The position numbers were made by a program, and so were the translations under genes. Shown here piece by piece: positions 12,318 through 22,669 of a DNA stretch of 35,978 nucleotides (the first letter of the stretch is position 1; each line of letters opens with the position of its first letter). The DNA comes from Chloroflexaceae bacterium. Its GTDB lineage: Bacteria; Cyanobacteriota; Cyanobacteriia; Cyanobacteriales; JAAUTE01. The stretch spans positions 1-35,978 of the forward strand of contig JAAUTE010000004.1 in NCBI GenBank assembly GCA_012031815.1. The letters are read 5' to 3'. Below the pieces are notes generated by a model. That model was not told the DNA's origin. It did no database searches and saw only the letters and a list, made by a program, of their open reading frames with translations.

Positions 12318-12427
12318 AACCTGACAAACAAGACGGTGGTAATTTCCTCCCAAATCCCTCCTAAGGCTGTCATTAACGCTAGGGTAGATAAAATGCCCTA
12401 TTAGCCTGATTGAGATTACCAGCGACG

Positions 12428-14508
12428 ATGACTGAAGCGACCCTTGCTGAAAACCCGCTTTTAATTGGCAAAGGCTTGCCGCCATTTGACCAAATTCGAC
12501 CCGAACAGGTCATTCCTGCCATGACGGAGTTGTTAGCCCGTTTAGAGCAGGACTTGGCTACTCTAGAAGCCACCGTTAGCCCTACCTGGGCCGGTTCCAT
12601 CGAACCCTTAACCGCCACACGCGATCGCCTGTATTGGACGTGGGGAATTATTGGTCATTTGATGGGCGTCAAAAACAGTCCAGAACTCCGCCAAGCTTAC
12701 GAAACCGTCCAGCCGGAAATTATCAAGTTCACCAGCAAACTGGGACAGAGCCAACCCCTCTATCAAGCTCTGAAAACCCTCCGAGCCGGAGACACCTGGG
12801 ACAGCTTAGAACCCGCGCAACAGCGCATCATCGACACAGCCATTCAAGAGGCGGAATTATCGGGCGTAGGCTTACAGGGAGAGCTACAGGAGCGCTTTAA
12901 CCAAATCCAGCAGGAATTGGCAGAATTGTCGACACGGTTTGGGAATAACGTCCTGGATGCCACCAAAGCTTTCAGGCTCGAACTCACCCGTCCCGAAGAG
13001 GTGGCCGGACTGCCAGCCAACATCCTGGCCCTGGCCGCCCAAACCGCACGCAATGATGGGTTAGAAACCGCAGCCCCAGCCGGGGGCCCGTGGGTATTTA
13101 CCCTGGACTACCCCAGCTATCTTCCCTTTCTCAAATACAGTACCCAGGAAGCCCTGCGAGAAAAACTCTACCGCGCCTTTGTTAGCCGTGCCGCTTCCGG
13201 CGAATTCGACAACAATTCCCAAATCGAGCGGATTTTAGCCCTACGGCAAGAAATGGCGAACCTGCTCGGCTTTAAGACCTACGCCGAACTCAGCCTCGCC
13301 CGTAAAATGGCTCCCTCCGTTGAAGCCGTCGAAGCCCTTTTGGAAGAACTCCGCCTGGCTAGCTATCCCGCTGCCGTTCAAGAATTGGCAGACTTAAAAG
13401 CCTTTGCCGCTAAAGACGACCTCAAACCTTGGGACGTTGCTTTTGGGCGGAGAAACAGCGAGAAGCGCAATTTGCCTTTTCTGCCGAGGAGCTACGGCCC
13501 TACTTTCCCCTGCCCCAGGTCTTGAGGGGACTTTTCGCCCTGGCTGAGCGAATTTTTGCCATCAATATCGCCCCTGCCGACGGTGACGCTCCCGTTTGGC
13601 ACGAGGACGTACGCTATTTCCAGGTCAGTGACGAAACCGAAGTGGCGATCGCCCATTTTTACCTTGATCCCTACAGCCGACCGGAAGAAAAGCGTGGTGG
13701 GGCCTGGATGGACGAATGTATCGGTCGCGGCAAAATTTCAGAAAACGGTCAAACCGTCCTGCGCTTACCCGTCGCTTATCTAGTGTGCAATCAAACCCCG
13801 CCGGTGGATGGCAAACCCGCCTTGATGACTTTTGAAGAGGTAGAAACCCTATTCCACGAATTTGGCCACGGTTTGCAGCACATGCTCACCCAGGTAGACT
13901 ATCCCGGAGCCGCAGGCATCAACAACATTGAATGGGATGCGGTAGAACTGCCCAGCCAGTTTATGGAAAACTGGTGCTACGACCGCGCCACCCTAATGGG
14001 CATGGCCCATCACTACGAAACCGGGGAGACCTTGCCGGAACATTATTATCAAAAACTGCTAGCGGCACGCAATTACATGAGCGGTTCAGCCATGCTGCGC
14101 CAGTTACACTTTAGCCTGCTGGATCTGGCACTGCACCACCACTACCAACCTGAGCGAGACACCCCGCAACAAATCAGAGAGCGCTTGATTCCCACAACCA
14201 CCGTGCTGCCTCCCCTCCCCGAAGACCAGTTTCTCTGCGCGTTCGGCCATATTTTCGCAGGCGGTTATGCGGCAGGTTACTACAGCTATAAATGGGCCGA
14301 AGTCCTCAGCGCTGATGCCTTCTCCGCCTTTGAAGAAGTAGGACTGGGAGACGAAATTGCGATCGCAGCCACGGGACGCCGCTTCCGGGAAACGATTTTG
14401 TCCCTCGGCGGCAGTTTACACCCGATGGAAATTTACAAAATCTTCCGGGGTCGAGAACCACAGACCGCGGCCATCCTGCGCCACAGCGGTTTAGTTCCAG
14501 CCGTCTAG
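12428..14508 (+). CDS. prlC: Oligopeptidase A-like M3 metallopeptidase, one frameshift
   Basis: A cytosolic zinc peptidase of about 693 residues that degrades short peptides, such as cleaved signal peptides. The zinc motif HEFGH lies near residue 477 in ETLFHEFGHGLQHML, followed by the third ligand region with EWDAVELPSQFMENW. The N-terminus NPLLIGKGLPPFDQIRPEQV is typical of PrlC. The start is ATG 12428; a TTG at 12410 lies upstream in frame. The frame breaks at TTTT 13441-13444; adding one T gives WDVAFWAEKQREAQF and restores the rest. The symbol follows the E. coli homologue; physiological substrates in cyanobacteria are not established. Confidence 0.88.
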
Positions 14509-14676: not shown

Positions 14677-15474
14677 CTAAAATACTCTAATGCGGCTACC
14701 AGTCAGCAGCGCCAAGACGGTCACCCCAAGGAGACCAAATTCTGTCGCTGGTTCAGGAACCTCCTGAACGCTCGGGGACCTTTCCTGAAAGATTACATTG
14801 TCAATCGCTGCTGCGTCGGTAGAATCGGCAGAAACTGCTTGAATGTCGATTGCCGTGATACGGACATCATTCTCAAGAATCTGAACGCCAAAAAAGTTAG
14901 AAGTTGCCTGATTCTCGTCTACAAAGACTGTTTGTTGGAACTGCGTGTTATCCGAGGCAAAGACAGTGATGTTGACGTTACCGCTTTCGAAAAGTCTAAC
15001 TAGATCGAAACCCAATCTGGTAATGGGGCCGCTGGTGGCGGTAGGAACTATTCGCAGCGTATCGGCAAAATCTGACACGGCAAGGACTGTGCTAGTCAGC
15101 GCCAATCCTGAATCTTCATTGTAAACACTCAAGGCATTCTGCGTACTCTCGGGCACTCTAAATTCCAGGTTAGGAACAATATCCCCCGGAGCAAACACCT
15201 GAACGCCAGATTCAGCTCCGATTCTGGAAGATGTGGAATTCAAGGGAGAGTTAAAGGCATCAAATCCAGGAAAATCAACAGAACTTGCAGGATTGTCTAC
15301 AATGACAGCTGCTTCAAAATCTTCTTCCCCAGTTGGTGCAAAATTTGGCGTAAATAATGTGTTTCGGCTAGTGAAAGCCTCAAAAGTCGCTGCTGCAGAG
15401 GGAAGAGTGAATGCTGCAACTCCCACAGATACAATCACGGCACTAGCCGCTGTCTTGCAAATCATCATTTTCAT
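14677..15474 (-). CDS. Secreted PEP-CTERM sorting-domain protein
   Basis: A 265-residue exported protein. It has an N-terminal signal peptide (KMMICKTAAS start, hydrophobic core, cleavage likely after PSAAA near residue 29) and a C-terminal sorting tail. The tail is VPEPATEFGLLG near residue 238, then a hydrophobic helix, then basic residues (GSRIRVF). PEP-CTERM proteins are processed by exosortase and placed at the surface or in the exopolysaccharide matrix. The middle, rich in Thr, Ser and Asp, resembles no catalytic domain I know. CAGGGG seven bases before the ATG supports the start. The gene is divergent from the lasso precursor across a 531-base gap. Confidence 0.8.
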   Translation of the reverse strand: MKMMICKTAASAVIVSVGVAAFTLPSAAATFEAFTSRNTLFTPNFAPTGEEDFEAAVIVDNPASSVDFPGFDAFNSPLNSTSSRIGAESGVQVFAPGDIVPNLEFRVPESTQNALSVYNEDSGLALTSTVLAVSDFADTLRIVPTATSGPITRLGFDLVRLFESGNVNITVFASDNTQFQQTVFVDENQATSNFFGVQILENDVRITAIDIQAVSADSTDAAAIDNVIFQERSPSVQEVPEPATEFGLLGVTVLALLTGSRIRVF

Positions 15475-16005: not shown

Positions 16006-16146
16006 ATGTCAAACAAAACTACATACACAAAACCAACGTTGACCTATTTTGGTACCGTTACCCTGATTACGGAAACAAACATGATGGGGGGGGTTGCTGA
16101 CAATCCTGGCACCAGGGGCAGCGATTCCAAGCTGCTTTCTCCCTAA
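16006..16146 (+). CDS. Lasso peptide precursor (A gene)
   Basis: A 46-residue peptide. The leader starts MSNKTTYTKPTLTYFG and carries the YxxPxL motif recognised by lasso RRE proteins, then a Gly, then Thr six residues after that Gly. If that Thr is the conserved leader -2 residue, cleavage after ITE gives a 23-residue core starting TNMMGGVAD. Asp9 is then in place for a nine-residue macrolactam with Thr1. The tail contains one Arg-Gly and ends KLLSP. An alternative is cleavage after ETN, with Met1 and Asp7. The ATG at 16006 is preferred to an upstream start at 15946. A run of eight G at 16086-16093 makes the frame sensitive to sequencing error, although one G more or fewer gives an implausible product. 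The gene converges on the cyclase gene, 42 bases away. Confidence 0.75.
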   Translation: MSNKTTYTKPTLTYFGTVTLITETNMMGGVADNPGTRGSDSKLLSP

Positions 16147-16188
16147 TGTTTGTCTGTTGGCTGCAAGATGCACTGGGCTGTTTTGTTG

Positions 16189-18029
16189 TCAACTTATGGT
16201 GTTGTTAAGGTGAACAAGCCAGAGGTTTAGAAGTAGGGGACGCAGACCCGTATAGATACCCTCGCTCCCTATTTCAGCCGAGGTAATTTTCGGGATTTCA
16301 TGAGAAACAATGTAAGCTGACAATTCAGGAACTGGCTTCCAGCGATCGAGCCAGTCTGTTCCGGCCCTTCTAACCAAAGAGTCTTGTAAGTTTCCTAAAG
16401 GTGTTTTGGGTCGTTGGACAACGGGATCGGGTAAGACTTCCTGCATGGCGCGACGAATTAGATATTTTCGGAATAGCCAGGGATAGGGCGATATAGCTAA
16501 AATCAGCTCGATTAACCGTAAATCCAGAAAAGGGTCGCGGTTTTCCAGCGCATGGGATTTAGTCTCATCTAAATACTCGCTTTCTCTGTACCAGTTTGGA
16601 AATACCATCCATCGGTGAACCGCCGGGTGACGCTGGTTAAGGGGCGAGGGATGCCACGACCAAACCTGCTGCCATCGTTCCCGAAGCTGAAGCCGCTCGG
16701 TGAAGGACGGATTTAACCAGCTGGGAAAAGCATAGGCAGGCGCATCACTGTTTTGGCGGGAGCGTCCCCGGAATTTAGCAATTAATCCAGTTCCCAGGGA
16801 TAGACGAATGTTATGGCGTAATTTTAGCTGTAAGGCTTCTTGTACAATGGCTAGGAGATTCTTTTGTCTGAGGCGGCTAAAAATGGTTGGGGAAGGCGGT
16901 AAGCACAGGAGATTATCGGCGCAGTCCCCGGTTAATAAAACTGGGCTGTAACTCGCCATTCGCCGAGCGAGGTCAACCCCCTGGATTGGGGTGTAGTTTT
17001 CACTCGGTTCGACGGGCGGACAGGGCGGTTGGAGTAGGGCATAGTTGTCACAAACAAAGTAGTCAATGGGCAATTCTAGCTTTTTGGCGACTAATCCAGC
17101 AAAATAGCGTTCCCGATCTGGATGGATGTGGTCGTAAACAGCGGTTACGGCTTGTAATTGGGTCGAACTAGCTCCTTCTCCCACGAGCTGGCAGGCTGTG
17201 GCCGCGACGGCGGTGGAGTCCATGCCGCCACTCATGGCAATCACGGCGCGATCGCAGCGGAGGCGGTCTTGAACGCAGATCTTAAAAACGGTGCGGAAGT
17301 GCTCTATGTAGTCTTGGTCATTTTTATATTTAAGTAGCGGGACTTCCAGGGGAAAATCCCAGTAGGGTTTGATGACAAGCTCGCCCCCGCTCCAGCTTAA
17401 AGAAGAGGCTGGCGGTAGTTTCTGAATATCGGCAAAGGGGGTGATTGATTTGTCTAGCCAGGTATGGCTCCCAAACAGCAAAAAATCTGCGATCGCCAAT
17501 TCATTTAAAGTATTGGTCACTCCTGGATAGCCCGCACGCAGTTCAGGCTGTTACTAAAAACCAGGGTATTGCCCAGGCGAGCGTAGTAGATAACTCTCAA
17601 ACCAAAGCGATCGCGGGCGCAAAATAATTTTCTGTGCCGTCGATCCCAAAGAGCAAACACAAAATCACCCAGCAAAGACTCCAGACAGGTTTCGCCCCAC
17701 AATTGGTAGGCATGAAGAATCAGGTTGACATCAGGATCGCTGGCTGACACAAGACAACCTTGGGCTTGCAGCCGAGGAATCAAGGTCGCGCGATCGTCGA
17801 TGCGGGCCTGGGCGGTTATGTAAACTTGCCCGTCCAAGGTGCAGGGCTGCTGTTCCCCTGCCGATTCCCAGGTTGTCCGTAACAGGGTATGGCCGAAGCC
17901 GACGTTGCCATCCAGCCAAATGTCTTGGGCGTCCGGCCCCCGATAGGTGAGGTGGGCCAGCAGGGTTTCTACGGATTGCCGGGGGACTGGCCGGTTGTCC
18001 AGGTTAATAATGCCGCAAATACCGCTCAT
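16189..18029 (-). CDS. Lasso peptide cyclase (asparagine synthetase-like, C protein), split by a frameshift or coupled ORFs
   Basis: The predicted macrolactam synthetase that adenylates the ring Asp and closes it on the core N-terminus. The N-terminal part (residues 1-170) is a glutamine-amidotransferase-like domain starting MSGICGIINLDNRP. The C-terminal part is an ATP-pyrophosphatase domain with SGGMDSTAVAA. The first frame stops at 17517-17519 and the second starts as GTG 17520, overlapping as GTGA. One added base near 17519 gives RAIQDVTNTLNELAIADFLLFG, the continuous form expected of a cyclase of about 613 residues. Either this is another one-base error or the two halves are separate, coupled proteins. 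It is the last gene of a minus-strand cluster that includes B1, B2, kinase and methyltransferase. Confidence 0.85.
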
Positions 18030-18067
18030 AAAGAGTCTATTAATCAATTTACCTCAGTCAATCGCCC

Positions 18068-19207
18068 TCAGCCGTAGCGTTGGGATAGGTCAGCCACATA
18101 GTTAAAGGCTTTTTTGTAGCTGGGAAAGCGCTGGGGAAATTGTTGGTGCAGTTTTTCGGCGATCGCTTTGAGGGTTTGGGGTTGTCCCATCTGAACCAGG
18201 AGCCAAGCGTCGATTTGACCGACTTCGGTGAGCTGGGGCTGGTAGACTTCGCTCCGCTTGCTCAAGGCTGTCATGGACAAGGGCTGGCCGAAAAACGTTG
18301 ATTGACGAAATTGGGCTTTAAGGAGGCGATCTCCGCTGGTAATTTCAGTTTCCCAGCGCCAGAGATAGTCTTCCCCCACAAGGCTAGCCTGAAGGGTAAC
18401 TGCGACGCGATCGCCGCTCGCCAAGGCTACTTCCTGTTGCCAGGGAAAAAAGCTGCGTCCGTAGACTAAATCCGCAGCCAGCGGCGAATTAGAATAGCCA
18501 ATTCCCGGCCCCAGGGTGGCATCAAACCACACCAGTAAACCGTGGCCCGTTCGCGGCTGCTCTAGGGTCCAACTCAAGGTATTTGACCAGTTTGGCTCTG
18601 AGATCGTGGTGTAATCCAGGGTTGCCCAAAGTTGCGGCTCGCCTACTAACTGCTCTGCCGCGACCTTGCCCTTACTTGAGGTGTTGATCGTGCGCGATCG
18701 CCCTGGCGTCATGTCGATGCCATAGGGACGGTTGGGCCAAGGGCCGTCGTGCCGAGCGTAAAGGGACGAATCTTCCACCAGAGCAACCCAGATCCGATCT
18801 TGGCAAGGAATGAGCTGGCCGCCAGGAGCCAGGAAGCGCCGGCGAGCATCGGCGATCGCGGCAATATGATCGCCAAACAGGGGCAAAACCCCGCGCAAGT
18901 CAGAAACAATGACATCCGCTGGTTCGGGGAGTTCCACCGCCGTTGACAGGGCCTGGTGAAAGTGAATGCGCCCTTGATAGCCGTTGTGTGCTGCAATTTC
19001 TCGGGCCACCTGAATGGCATCGCTGGGTTCAATGGCATATACCTGCCGCGCTCCCAACTGACAGGCAATCAGGGCAAAAATTCCGGTTCCCGTGCCGATA
19101 TCGACGACCACAGACCCCGGTTTTACCTGCTGGCTCAGAGCTGCAACGTAGGCATCCGTGCGCGCCGTATCGGCAATCATTTGACCGTAGTTGGTAATGC
19201 TATACAT
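18068..19207 (-). CDS. PRMT/L11-methyltransferase-like SAM methyltransferase with a PqqD-like C-terminal domain
   Basis: A 379-residue protein. The SAM motif I is VVDIGTGTGIFALIACQLGA near residue 33, then AIEPS (motif post-I). VIVSDLRGVLPLFGD near residue 100 sits where protein arginine methyltransferases have their SE-x-MGY double-E loop; the first Glu is Asp here. The middle is a beta-rich PRMT-barrel-like region. The last 60 residues (QIDAWLLVQMG, TLKAIAEKLHQQFP, then ADLSQRYG) resemble the winged-helix PqqD/RRE fold, which would let it dock on a leader peptide. Its place between kinase and cyclase genes suggests tailoring of the lasso peptide, perhaps its single Arg. It overlaps the kinase gene end by 31 bases. 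The substrate is inferred only. Confidence 0.75.
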   Translation of the reverse strand: MYSITNYGQMIADTARTDAYVAALSQQVKPGSVVVDIGTGTGIFALIACQLGARQVYAIEPSDAIQVAREIAAHNGYQGRIHFHQALSTAVELPEPADVIVSDLRGVLPLFGDHIAAIADARRRFLAPGGQLIPCQDRIWVALVEDSSLYARHDGPWPNRPYGIDMTPGRSRTINTSSKGKVAAEQLVGEPQLWATLDYTTISEPNWSNTLSWTLEQPRTGHGLLVWFDATLGPGIGYSNSPLAADLVYGRSFFPWQQEVALASGDRVAVTLQASLVGEDYLWRWETEITSGDRLLKAQFRQSTFFGQPLSMTALSKRSEVYQPQLTEVGQIDAWLLVQMGQPQTLKAIAEKLHQQFPQRFPSYKKAFNYVADLSQRYG

Positions 19208-20179
19208 GGAAGGGTGGCAAAATCCTGAAGAATTGCTTGGGTGAGTTGGGGTAGTTTCGCCAGATTTCGGTAGTTGTTGAGGCGTCGGAGGGGAACGCTG
19301 GCAGCTAACCGTCCAAAGATGCTAAATTCCTGCTTCTGTAGCCAAGAATCATGCCACCGGTAGCGATAGCTCTCTCCGATCAGGGCTAGCCATCCTTCCT
19401 GCTTCTCACAAGGCTGAATCCCTATTTCTTCCCCGGCTGTTCCCTGAAGGAGGTAAATTGCCCCTAGGGGTAGGGGAGTCGCTTGAAAGGCGCAATTTTG
19501 GCTGAGATCGAGGTAGCGCTTGTCGTAGCTAGGGGCAAGCCGGGGTTGGGGCGTCGCGATCGCCACAAAGAACTTCTACCGAATCTTCCCAAAGGCGCAG
19601 GCGGGGATAGCCGGGAACTGCCAGAAATCCGTTATCTCGCTCTACCAACGGCAAAACATCGTCACTGACTGCGGGATAGCCCTGTTGGGTTAGGGCAGCG
19701 GCTGTGGTTGATTTGCCTGACCCCGACGGCCCGACCAGGGCTAGAGCGCGATCGCCTACGGCCACGGCACTGGCATGGAGACAGATCCTTCCTCGTCGCC
19801 GCACCAGAAATCCCATCACCGGCCCCAGCAGGTAAAGGGCCGCATCTTCCAGGGTGAGGGAGGGGCACCAATCTCCCCAAAGGGCCATTCCCTGGCGATC
19901 GCAAACGAATTCAATCCCTTTCTCGTAACCAATGTGAAAATAAGCGCCCCCTGCCACTATCGTTACGGTCAACAGGGGCTGACCCGCTTCGTCTAACCAG
20001 GGAGAGGTGTAGTAGGGAGTCCGCTCTCCCCGGCAGTATTCCTGCAACCAGCCAGGAAACGGCCCGCAGGTAACACAGATATCTGCTGCCCCCGTAGCCA
20101 AATCCGACCGCAGAACGGTTCCGGGAATCGGGCAGTTGGCCTGCAGGTGCAGGCCGTAGATTAAAGTATGCCAGCTCAA
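19177..20179 (-). CDS. HprK-like kinase of the lasso cluster, one frameshift
   Basis: Repaired length is about 333 residues. The HPr-kinase-like core shows RICLHASAVAVGD, a P-loop GPSGSGKSTTAA near residue 151, and an acidic motif VSDDVLPL near 173. In other bacteria such kinases in lasso clusters (paeninodin type) phosphorylate a Ser at the precursor C-terminus. The precursor here ends Ser-Pro and has two more tail Ser residues. The frame breaks near GGGG 19548-19551 (plus strand); with one G fewer the protein reads LCGDRDAQPRLAPSYDKRYL and ends at 19177. It may be a tailoring enzyme, but HprK-related proteins also occur near PqqD proteins in other peptide pathways. Confidence 0.78.
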
Positions 20180-20256
20180 AAATAGCCCTCTGGTCGTTTT
20201 TTCTAGAAATCGGCAGTTTGTTTTCTAGTTTCGGCCCCTTGAGAATTTCTGTCAAT

Positions 20257-20754
20257 CTAAAACTGGGCCAGCCCTCGATCCTTAGCGGCGGTTCGGAACC
20301 AGGAAATCCCAGGACGCGACCCAAAGGCTGCATAGGCAGAAACTGCTTCTGGGGTATCGTTGAGCACCGCGTCCCCCGACTCCACCCAGGCATGGGCTTG
20401 AAATTGCGCTGATGCTCGTCTGACTCCTAGCCTGAGTTCGCTCTCAATGCCTCGCGATCGCAACAGACAATGTAATACCAGCGATCGCTGCAAACAGTTG
20501 CCAGTGCGGGTGTAACGAGCTGCCAATTGACACTGACGGGCGATCGCTCGGGCCCCAGTCTCATCTACTGTTTGGATGGGGGGAGCTGTCAGCCAGCAGG
20601 AGAGCCAGCGAGCCGTCGCTTTCAAGCCAAGCAAAGGCAGGAGACCCCTAACCGCCACCAATAAGGCCAGAGCCTGCCAAAACAGCGTTTTTTCCCAGCA
20701 GGACAACTGGCTCCAGGTGCGACACTTACGACTGAGTAATTTCCACCAATCCAT
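20257..20754 (-). CDS. Lasso leader peptidase, transglutaminase-like (B2)
   Basis: A protein of about 165 residues starting MDWWKLLSRKCRTWSQ. The catalytic Cys is in RTGNCLQRSLVL and the His in FQAHAWVESG, with a downstream Asp in AVLNDTPEA, the Cys-His-Asp set of the lasso B2 family. It removes the leader peptide in an ATP-dependent maturation complex with B1 and the cyclase. A hydrophobic stretch near residues 25-45 may be a membrane contact. The start at 20754 overlaps the end of B1 by 29 bases, implying coupling. The longer upstream frame from 20919 is out-of-frame B1 sequence. Confidence 0.85.
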   Translation of the reverse strand: MDWWKLLSRKCRTWSQLSCWEKTLFWQALALLVAVRGLLPLLGLKATARWLSCWLTAPPIQTVDETGARAIARQCQLAARYTRTGNCLQRSLVLHCLLRSRGIESELRLGVRRASAQFQAHAWVESGDAVLNDTPEAVSAYAAFGSRPGISWFRTAAKDRGLAQF

Positions 20755-21025
20755 GAGCGAGCAGGCTTTGAACGAAGGCGAGTAAATCTTGCTCCAAGCG
20801 GTCAGCTTCCACATCGTATTCATCCAGCAGCAGTTGAGCTGCCGCCGCAATGGAGTTTGATGCCTGCAAAACAGCCAGCATCCGAGTCCCAATGGCGTCC
20901 AAGCCAAAATATTCTTCACTAGCGCAGTTGAGAAACACGCTTTCCCCGCCTAAATCCTGCATCAACACCTGGGAGGATAGGGAAACTTTTTGGGTCAGCG
21001 CCAGGGGAGTTTCAGTTTGCGTCAT
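20726..21025 (-). CDS. PqqD-family RiPP recognition protein (B1)
   Basis: A 99-residue PqqD-fold protein (MTQTETPLAL start) with a beta-hairpin region LMQDLGGESVFLNCASEEYFGLD, then helices AIGTRMLAVLQ and LEQDLLAFVQSLLAHGLVEI. RREs of this type bind the lasso leader through its YxxPxL segment and deliver it to B2. The ATG at 21025 is preferred to an in-frame start at 21058. It is the first gene of the minus-strand lasso cluster and begins 44 bases after the leuA stop, on the same strand. Confidence 0.85.
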   Translation of the reverse strand: MTQTETPLALTQKVSLSSQVLMQDLGGESVFLNCASEEYFGLDAIGTRMLAVLQASNSIAAAAQLLLDEYDVEADRLEQDLLAFVQSLLAHGLVEITQS

Positions 21026-21069: not shown

Positions 21070-22669
21070 TTAAGTTCCAGCGGCCGTGGAACTCAGTTGT
21101 GCTGTCCGCTGTTGGGCGGCGTAAAGACGGTTGAGGGCGCTGACGTAGGCCCGAGCTGAGGCAACAATGATGTCCGTATCCGCCCCATGACCTGAATAAA
21201 TCCGCTCCGCCTGCTTGAGGCGAATTGTTACTTCCCCAATGGCATCAATACCCGCCGTCACCGACTTGACGGAAAATTCAATGAGCTGGTTAGGCACGTC
21301 GATCGCCCGATTGATGGCTTTGTAGACCGCATCCACAGGGCCCGTGCCAATGGCTGCATCGGTTAATTCCCTGCCATCGGGGGCGCGCAGGGTAACAGTA
21401 GCGGTGGGACGGGCGCGATCACCACAGGAAACCTGTACCAATTCCAGGCGAAAGAGTTCCGGCTGCTGCTGAATTTCGTCGTTGACGATGGCTTCTAAAT
21501 CCCAGTCGGTGATTTCTTTTTTCTTGTCGGCAATGTCTTTAAAACTGACAAAAGCCCGGTTAAGTTCGCTCTCACTCAGCTCGTAGCCCAATTCCTTGAG
21601 GCGAGAACGGAAGGCATTACGGCCCGAATGCTTGCCCAAAATAATTTGGTTGGTGGTGAGGCCGATGGACTGGGCGTCCATGATTTCGTAGGTCAGCTTG
21701 TTTTGAGGACGCCGTCCTGGTGGATGCCCGATTCGTGGGCAAAGGCGTTGGCCCCCACAATGGCTTTATTGGGCTGTACCATCATGCCCGTCAGGTGGGA
21801 AACCAGGCGGGAGGTTTTATAAATTTGGGTAGTGTCGATGTTGGTGAGGGGGTCTGGGGATTCGGGCAGTCGACCCAGGAAGGGATTGAAATACTGACGG
21901 CGCACGTGCAGGGCCATGACCAATTCTTCCAGGGCCGCATTACCGGCGCGCTCGCCAATGCCGTTGATGGTGCATTCCAGTTGGCGGGCCCCGTTTTTGA
22001 TCGCTTCCAGGAAATTAGCCACGGCTAAGCCTAGATCGTTGTGGCCGTGAACGGAGATGATCGCGCGATCGCAACTGGGCACATTGTCTTTAATGCCGCG
22101 GATTAAGGCACCAAATTCTGCCGGGGTCGTGTAGCCGACGGTATCGGGAATATTAATCGTGGTCGCGCCCGCTTCAATGGCCAGCTCTAGCACCTGATAG
22201 AGAAATTCCGGGTCGCTGCGTCCGGCATCTTCCGGGGAAAATTCCACATCTTCCGTCCAGGATTTGGCATAGGCGACCATTTCTGGAACAATAGCTAGGA
22301 CTTGCTCGCGGGTTTTCCGCAGTTTATGGGTCAGGTGAATGTCTGAAGTGGCAATAAAGGTGTGAATTCTCGGCTTAGCTGCTCCCTTGAGGGCTTCCCC
22401 AGCCGCTTTAATGTCGGCTTTGGTGGCTCGGGCCAGGCCGCAAATGGTCGGGCCGCCTTCGCTGCCAACCTGCTCGGCGATTTTCTGGACTGCCTCAAAA
22501 TCCCCCGGACTCGCGTAGGGAAACCCGGCTTCAATCACATCTACGCCCAGTCGCGCTAGGGCACGGGCGATCGCCAGTTTTCTTCTACGTTTAAGGTGGC
22601 CCCAGGAGACTGTTCGCCATCCCGGAGGGTGGTGTCAAAGATAATAATGCGCTCAGGTGCCGTCTGCAT
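21070..22669 (-). CDS. leuA: 2-isopropylmalate synthase, two frameshifts
   Basis: First committed step of leucine synthesis: acetyl-CoA and 2-oxoisovalerate give 2-isopropylmalate. Repaired length is about 533 residues. N-terminal [19 protein letters not shown] holds the Arg-Asp of the active site; the metal ligands are in [26 protein letters not shown] precedes the regulatory C-terminal domain that senses leucine. Two one-base losses lie in A runs (T on the plus strand): TTTT 22578-22581, where one more A gives [13 protein letters not shown], and TTTT 21701-21704, where one more A gives [15 protein letters not shown]. Both repairs restore an ordinary enzyme, so error is more likely than inactivation. 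The lasso operon follows at once. Confidence 0.92.

What the first reader, a model, noticed from the sequence alone, without database searches (positions are those of the whole stretch)
16006..21025. Cyanobacterial lasso-peptide cluster with both a kinase and a PRMT-like methyltransferase
All core lasso functions are visible: precursor, RRE (B1), transglutaminase-like peptidase (B2) and cyclase (C). Between B2 and C lie an HprK-like kinase and a PRMT/L11-type methyltransferase. Lasso kinases (paeninodin type) and C-terminal O-methyltransferases are known separately; I know of no described cyanobacterial lasso peptide with kinase plus PRMT-like enzyme. No exporter or isopeptidase gene is present, so release may use a distant transporter.
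Basis: partly seen in the sequence, partly recalled or inferred. Interest (0 to 1): 0.82.

Follow-up and report, generated by a model that had tools for sequence, protein, structure and literature searches.

The report
Doubly tailored lasso-peptide gene cluster
A cyanobacterium carries genes for a knotted (lasso) peptide that is probably both phosphorylated and methylated; the same kinase-plus-methyltransferase gene set recurs in several bacterial phyla, and the methyltransferase is built like an arginine methyltransferase but has lost the residues that grip arginine.

Summary
On the minus strand lie RRE/B1, B2 peptidase, an HprK-like kinase, a PRMT-fold methyltransferase (MT) and a lasso cyclase, with a precursor gene convergent on the plus strand. 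The kinase and cyclase frames are each interrupted once, probably by sequencing indels (leuA and opdA in the same contig break at homopolymers).

The combination is not a one-off. Homologous clusters with B1, B2, C, kinase and MT occur in about a dozen other cyanobacterial genomes and in Acidobacteria, Blastocatellia, Rokubacteria, Chloroflexi and proteobacteria. Genomes with an unlinked MT still hold a lasso cyclase elsewhere. Relatives also carry an ABC exporter and a nucleotidyltransferase; this genome has that pair on another contig.

The MT is a true PRMT homologue (PDB profile match E = 4e-39), but its double-Glu loop is replaced by SD[LI]RG...H and its THW loop is lost, so arginine is an unlikely acceptor. 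Precursors of MT-positive clusters carry Lys/Arg near the C-terminus (24 of 26; usually K-[S/T]); kinase-only cyanobacterial clusters mostly do not (5 of 14). I infer Lys methylation beside a phosphorylated Ser/Thr; this is untested. It is a new variant of a known kind; I found no description in the open library searched.

The parts
16006..16146 (+). lasso precursor A, 46 aa; leader ..YTKPTLTYFGTVTLIT-E, predicted core TNMMGGVADNPGTRGSDSKLLSP (ring T1-D9 under the Thr(-2) rule)
   Evidence: NF033528 E 3e-4 below cut-off; only strict leader-pattern hit in the window; paralogous precursor with a similar ring (ENGMLGRVDN) on own contig C140
16189..18029 (-). lasso cyclase C (asparagine-synthetase-like), frame interrupted once near 17532
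   Evidence: GATase_7 and Asn_synthase; NF033535 on both halves; relatives have one ORF
18068..19207 (-). PRMT-fold SAM methyltransferase, clade A (SDLRG...H loop, no double-Glu, no THW)
   Evidence: PrmA/PRMT_C; profile vs PDB PRMT1 E 4e-39; Foldseek PRMT6 E 1.5e-23; loop comparison
19177..20179 (-). HprK-like peptide kinase, frame interrupted once near 19550 (GCCCCAACCCC)
   Evidence: Hpr_kinase_C, TIGR04352 partial; 41-48% to relatives' single-ORF kinase; LHASA..GPSGSGKS..SDD motif intact
20257..20754 (-). B2 leader peptidase (transglutaminase-like); 20754 is the likely start, the open frame reaches 20919
   Evidence: Transglut_core3 E 1e-20; NF033537 E 1e-23
20726..21025 (-). B1, PqqD-like RiPP recognition element
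   Evidence: PqqD E 6e-13; NF033536 E 1e-13, below cut-off

Best explanation
The locus makes a lasso peptide that carries two tailoring marks. Shown by sequence: B1 (leader-binding RRE), B2 (leader peptidase), C (macrolactam cyclase), an HprK-like kinase with its catalytic motif, a PRMT-fold SAM methyltransferase and a precursor with the lasso leader motif. Inferred from characterised families: B1 binds the YxxPxL leader; the kinase and MT act on the linear precursor; B2 cuts two residues after the conserved Thr; C joins residue 1 to Asp9 around the tail. Inferred here: the kinase phosphorylates a tail Ser/Thr and the MT methylates the tail Lys (window: S-D-S-K-L-L-S-P), because a tail Lys/Arg is the feature shared by MT-positive precursors. 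The exporter and a nucleotidyltransferase act from contig C87. Confidence in the Lys site alone is about 0.4.
For: Conserved co-occurrence: 8 of 100 same-order genomes have B1-B2-C-A-kinase-MT, and the three whose operons were read further downstream continue into an ABC exporter and nucleotidyltransferase (L016, L019, L020). The set recurs in Acidobacteria, Blastocatellia, Rokubacteria, Chloroflexi, Pseudomonadota and other cyanobacteria. Genomes with an unlinked MT still have the lasso cyclase, and mostly the kinase, with NKTN precursor tails in G027 and G051. Tail Lys/Arg in the last 8 residues: MT-positive cyanobacteria 13/13, all MT-positive 24/26, kinase-only cyanobacterial loci 5/14 (Fisher p about 6e-4); [KR][ST]: 10/13 vs 1/14 (p about 3e-4). 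The distance from this Lys to the C-terminus varies from 1 to 5 residues, which argues against a carboxylate acceptor. The feature follows the MT more than the kinase: MT-positive clusters with a divergent kinase lineage keep a basic tail residue in 4 of 5 cases, while the kinases sister to the main MT-positive clade (L147-L153), without MT, mostly lack it.
Against: No product has been seen. The window's tail (SKLLSP) has Lys but not the K-[ST] order, and no C-terminal Ser as in paeninodin-type kinase substrates. The Fisher tests ignore shared ancestry; the number of independent contrasts is small (perhaps 2-4). Two MT-positive precursors lack a tail Lys/Arg (L037, L185), and L042 was left out of the count because its leader lacks the usual motif. 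PRMT-fold lysine methylation is not something I can cite. The frame breaks could be real mutations.
Confidence: 0.65

Rival explanations
1. The MT esterifies the C-terminal carboxylate, as LasF/StspM do in lassomycin-like lasso peptides; the conserved Arg105 and His114 that replace the PRMT Glu pair bind the carboxylate, and the tail Lys is only a recognition element.
For: C-terminal methyl esters are the precedented lasso methylation (PMC9266682, PMC8498205). Loss of the double-Glu and gain of Arg/His suit an anionic acceptor.
Against: The K-[ST] motif sits at varying distance from the C-terminus and the C-terminal residue itself is not conserved. The fold is PRMT, with no match to StspM-type families in Pfam or NCBIfam.
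Confidence: 0.15
2. The MT methylates the Ser/Thr hydroxyl or the phosphate that the kinase adds (or Asp, as PIMT-type aspartimide enzymes do), so the two enzymes act in series on one residue.
For: Kinase and MT genes are almost always found together, often adjacent, and the [ST] next to Lys is nearly as conserved as the Lys.
Against: No phosphate O-methylation precedent known to me in RiPPs. Clusters such as L034, L154 and L043 keep a basic tail residue but not the K-[ST] pair. No PCMT/PIMT match.
Confidence: 0.12
3. In this particular strain the cluster is decaying: the kinase and cyclase frameshifts are real and no lasso peptide is made.
For: Both genes are split over two frames; gene order is rearranged, the precursor is convergent, and exporter and nucleotidyltransferase are on another contig.
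Against: leuA and opdA in the same contig have the same kind of single-base breaks at homopolymers, which points to sequencing error. Both halves keep their catalytic motifs and align end to end with relatives.
Confidence: 0.15
4. The MT is a housekeeping protein methyltransferase (L11 type or true PRMT) that lies beside the lasso genes by chance.
For: Best Pfam model is PrmA, the L11 methyltransferase.
Against: It matches PRMT1/PRMT6 over both domains, is found in only 6 of 386 cyanobacterial and 14 of 396 acidobacterial genomes, and in all five genomes checked for it a lasso cyclase is also present.
Confidence: 0.03

Closest known systems
Paeninodin-type lasso clusters (PadeK/ThcoK kinases)
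   Same: A, B1, B2, C, exporter (in relatives) and an HprK-like kinase with the same H - GxGK[ST] - DD motif
   Different: paeninodin-type precursors end in the phosphorylated Ser; here the tail is K-[ST] plus a few residues, and a PRMT-fold MT is added
Pseudomycoidin (PsmK + PsmN) and the bsf cluster of Bradymonas (BsfK, BsfN)
   Same: kinase plus nucleotidyltransferase; BsfK shows that lasso kinases can modify an internal residue (Ser3)
   Different: no MT described as a cluster member in the text read (PMC9266682, PMC10368454)
Lassomycin-like clusters (LasF / StspM O-methyltransferases)
   Same: a SAM methyltransferase tailors the lasso precursor
   Different: StspM was modelled on mitomycin-7-O-methyltransferase (PMC9266682); this enzyme has the PRMT fold, and no kinase is part of the described lassomycin-type clusters
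Cellulonodin-2 / lihuanodin (PIMT homologues, aspartimide)
   Same: protein-methyltransferase family recruited to a lasso pathway
   Different: PIMT fold acting on Asp of the threaded lasso; no PIMT match here
Eukaryotic PRMT1/PRMT6
   Same: Rossmann fold plus beta-barrel domain, profile E 4e-39, Foldseek E 1.5e-23
   Different: double-Glu and THW loops absent; extra C-terminal helical domain

Membership tests
lasso-peptide biosynthetic cluster | PqqD-like RRE (B1) and transglutaminase-like B2 | tested here: met
lasso-peptide biosynthetic cluster | Asn-synthetase-like macrolactam cyclase | tested here: met
   both halves match NF033535, though below its full-length cut-off because the frame is split; relatives have one ORF
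lasso-peptide biosynthetic cluster | precursor with YxxPxL leader, Thr(-2) and Asp/Glu at core position 7-9 | tested here: met
   YTKPTL, Thr(-2), Asp9
lasso-peptide biosynthetic cluster | threaded [1]rotaxane product | not testable with these tools
   needs MS and NMR
lasso-peptide HprK-like kinases (PadeK/ThcoK/BsfK) | H - GxxGxGK[ST] - DD catalytic motif | tested here: met
   motif as given in PMC10368454
paeninodin-type kinase clusters | precursor with C-terminal Ser | tested here: not met
   window core ends LLSP; relatives end KSKA, NKTNT, NKT etc.
protein arginine methyltransferases | Rossmann domain plus PRMT beta-barrel | tested here: met
protein arginine methyltransferases | double-Glu loop and THW loop that bind and orient arginine | tested here: not met
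   SDLRGVLPLFGDH and LVYG in place of SE.........E and THW
PIMT-type lasso aspartimide enzymes | PIMT (PCMT) domain | tested here: not met
   no PCMT match among Pfam hits at E <= 0.01
lassomycin-type C-terminal O-methyltransferases | modifies the C-terminal carboxylate | not testable with these tools
   needs enzyme assay; StspM was not compared directly

The most novel reading that the evidence does not exclude
A PRMT-fold methyltransferase family dedicated to lasso peptides has traded its arginine-gripping Glu pair for an Asp/Arg/His loop and methylates a lysine in the peptide tail next to a phosphorylated Ser/Thr. This would give a multi-phylum family of lasso peptides bearing both phosphate and N-methyl-lysine, some of them with a 10-residue ring.
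Probability: 0.35. Interest if true: 0.75.

Novelty: new variant of a known kind. Interest (0 to 1): 0.58.

Why it matters
Lasso tailoring enzymes are few, and each has been seen singly or as kinase plus nucleotidyltransferase. A conserved, multi-phylum kinase-plus-PRMT-fold set gives a directly testable substrate motif (K-[ST] in the tail), a candidate family in which the PRMT scaffold has changed its acceptor, and named strains to work from (Phormidium sp. LEGE 05292, Nodosilinea sp. P-1105, Spirulina sp. CCY15215).

Tried and rejected
A direct protein scan of genome contigs with the window MT found nothing; the alignment-based scan worked. I tested whether the MT's C-terminal helical domain is an RRE: profile comparison with B1 proteins gave no support (P 0.021 over 24 columns). 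The N-terminal extension of the clade-B MT on C140 resembles B1 over 93 columns (P 0.002), but the hhalign probability is 13% and Pfam gives no PqqD match, so 'RRE-MT fusion' stays a suggestion. I first read L184 (genome G701) as an MT-positive cluster without a kinase; the kinase turned out to be on another contig, so it is not a kinase-free test case. The 'housekeeping L11 methyltransferase' reading was rejected. Tietz 2017 and Zhu 2016 are not held, so their survey tables could not be checked for this combination.
Full report
WHAT IS THERE. The window is contig C120 of a 3.79 Mb cyanobacterial draft genome (86.6% complete). It lies in the same order as Spirulina: G051 counts as 'same order', and its MT contig C188 has the same length (15,372) as the Spirulina sp. 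CCY15215 contig that gave L035. On the minus strand, in transcription order, are B1 (20726-21025), B2 (about 20257-20754), an HprK-like kinase (19177-20179), a methyltransferase (18068-19207) and a lasso cyclase (16189-18029). The precursor gene (16006-16146) is on the plus strand, convergent with the cyclase. The assignments rest on Pfam and NCBIfam matches. The precursor is short, so its family score is weak (NF033528 E 3e-4, below cut-off). It is nevertheless the only strict leader-pattern hit in the window, against 0.11 expected in shuffled sequence, and a paralogous precursor with a similar ring (ENGMLGRVDN against TNMMGGVADN) is on contig C140 of the same genome.

BROKEN FRAMES. The kinase and the cyclase each change frame once; in relatives each is one ORF. 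The kinase break lies in GCCCCAACCCC and the cyclase break near CGGGC. leuA (near 21706, AAAA where the conserved protein needs AAAAA) and opdA (near 13441, TTTT for TTTTT) are broken the same way. That these are sequencing indels is an inference, not shown.

NEIGHBOURHOODS. The MT was the bait. Of 100 same-order genomes, 14 have a match at E <= 1e-20; in 8 of them (L016-L023) it lies in an operon B1-B2-C-A-kinase-MT. In the three whose downstream ORFs were listed, an ABC exporter of about 600 aa and a nucleotidyltransferase follow (L016, L019, L020). Outside Cyanobacteria the same set, with MT 36-55% identical, is in Acidobacteria (L030, L031, L037), Blastocatellia (L041), Rokubacteria (L039), Chloroflexi (L042), a gammaproteobacterial MAG (L036) and another pseudomonadotan MAG (L043); some of these contigs are short and B1 or B2 was not found on every one. 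Many of these are metagenome bins, so single assignments may be wrong, but the pattern over several phyla is unlikely to be. The MT is rare: 6 of 386 cyanobacterial genomes at E <= 1e-50 and 14 of 396 genomes of the phylum of L030, an acidobacterial MAG, at E <= 1e-60.

Three genomes have the MT away from lasso genes (G051, G027, G844). Each has a lasso cyclase elsewhere, and G051 and G027 have the kinase beside it. The precursors of G051 and G027 end in NKTN. The association therefore holds even when the genes are unlinked.

EXPORTER. The best exporter homologue in the window's genome is on C87 (604 aa, 41% identity, E 6e-152), followed by a nucleotidyltransferase (PF14907, E 4e-61). It is flanked by unrelated genes, so the pathway appears split over contigs. 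That these genes serve this peptide is inferred.

THE METHYLTRANSFERASE. A profile of nine relatives matches PRMT1 at E 4e-39 over residues 8-271. The AlphaFold model (mean pLDDT 75.5, only 12 sequences) matches PRMT6 and PRMT1 at E about 1e-23. Alignment of the catalytic loops separates two groups. Clade A, which includes the window and the clusters above, has SD[LI]RG...H (with a few variants) where PRMTs have the double-Glu loop, and [LI][IV]YG where they have THW. Clade B keeps SE(I/T)IG...E and the Trp; it includes the C140 enzyme of this genome, whose precursor has one Arg in the predicted core, in the ring. So clade A has the PRMT fold without the known arginine determinants.

WHERE THE MARKS MIGHT GO. 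MT-positive precursors share the leader, the ring Asp/Glu and a basic residue near the C-terminus (24 of 26; K or R followed by S or T in 19 of 26). Kinase-positive, MT-negative cyanobacterial loci show it in 5 of 14 and 1 of 14 (loci). At the threshold 13 of those 14 genomes lack the MT altogether; the other, G033, has the MT in a separate cluster. The kinase tree shows the MT with two kinase lineages, both with basic tails in most members, while the kinases sister to the main MT-positive clade lack the MT and mostly the basic tail; two of those end in Ser, as paeninodin-type substrates do. The simplest reading is that Lys is the methylation site and Ser/Thr the phosphorylation site. The tests treat related sequences as independent, so the p-values overstate the case.

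PRECEDENTS. Lasso kinases: PadeK/ThcoK at C-terminal Ser, BsfK at Ser3 (PMC9266682, PMC8498205, PMC10368454). Kinase plus nucleotidyltransferase: pseudomycoidin and bsf. Methylation: LasF/StspM at the C-terminus and PIMT homologues at Asp. No paper in the library holds 'lasso peptide' with 'PRMT' and 'RiPP' or with 'lysine methyl' and 'tailoring'. The library is open-access only, and Tietz 2017 and Zhu 2016 are not held, so absence of a description is not established.

VERDICT. The chemistry and the site remain untested.

Noticed in passing
precursors in L016, L017, L019-L023, L033, L039, L184, L189, L192: Under the Thr(-2) rule, 12 of 26 MT-positive precursors have their ring Asp at position 10 and, apart from L021 (Asp6), no other acid at a usable position. 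Described lasso rings have 7-9 residues (PMC8498205), so either a 10-residue ring or a shifted cleavage site is predicted.
   Followed up: partly
L029:7151-8498 (own genome, contig C140): A second lasso-type precursor (..LTLENGMLGRVDNLVTMTMALS) directly followed by a PRMT-like MT that keeps the double-Glu loop and has an N-terminal extension, with no B or C genes nearby; it may borrow the C120 machinery.
   Followed up: partly
L182:7944-11076 (own genome, contig C87): Orphan lasso-type ABC exporter plus NTP_transf_5 nucleotidyltransferase, apart from the rest of the lasso genes.
   Followed up: partly
window 21070-22538 and 12410-14508: leuA and opdA are each split by a one-base deficit in a homopolymer, a sign of indel errors in this assembly.
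   Followed up: partly
clade-B-like MTs: L029, L051, L193: MTs that keep a Glu in the first double-Glu position go with precursors containing Arg (ring R7 in L029; RKRS, SRASR tails), whereas clade-A enzymes go mostly with Lys: a possible acceptor switch.
   Followed up: no
L020 and L153 (both genome G033): One cyanobacterium has two kinase-bearing lasso clusters: with MT the precursor ends NKTGYNM, without MT it ends AAGS.
   Followed up: no
L162:2834-4844: Five lasso-type precursor genes in a row in one cyanobacterial cluster.
   Followed up: no
window 14677-15474, minus strand: Secreted-looking protein whose C-terminus (VPEPATEFGLLGVTVLALLTGSRIRVF) looks like a PEP-CTERM sorting signal; not tested by a family model.
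   Followed up: no
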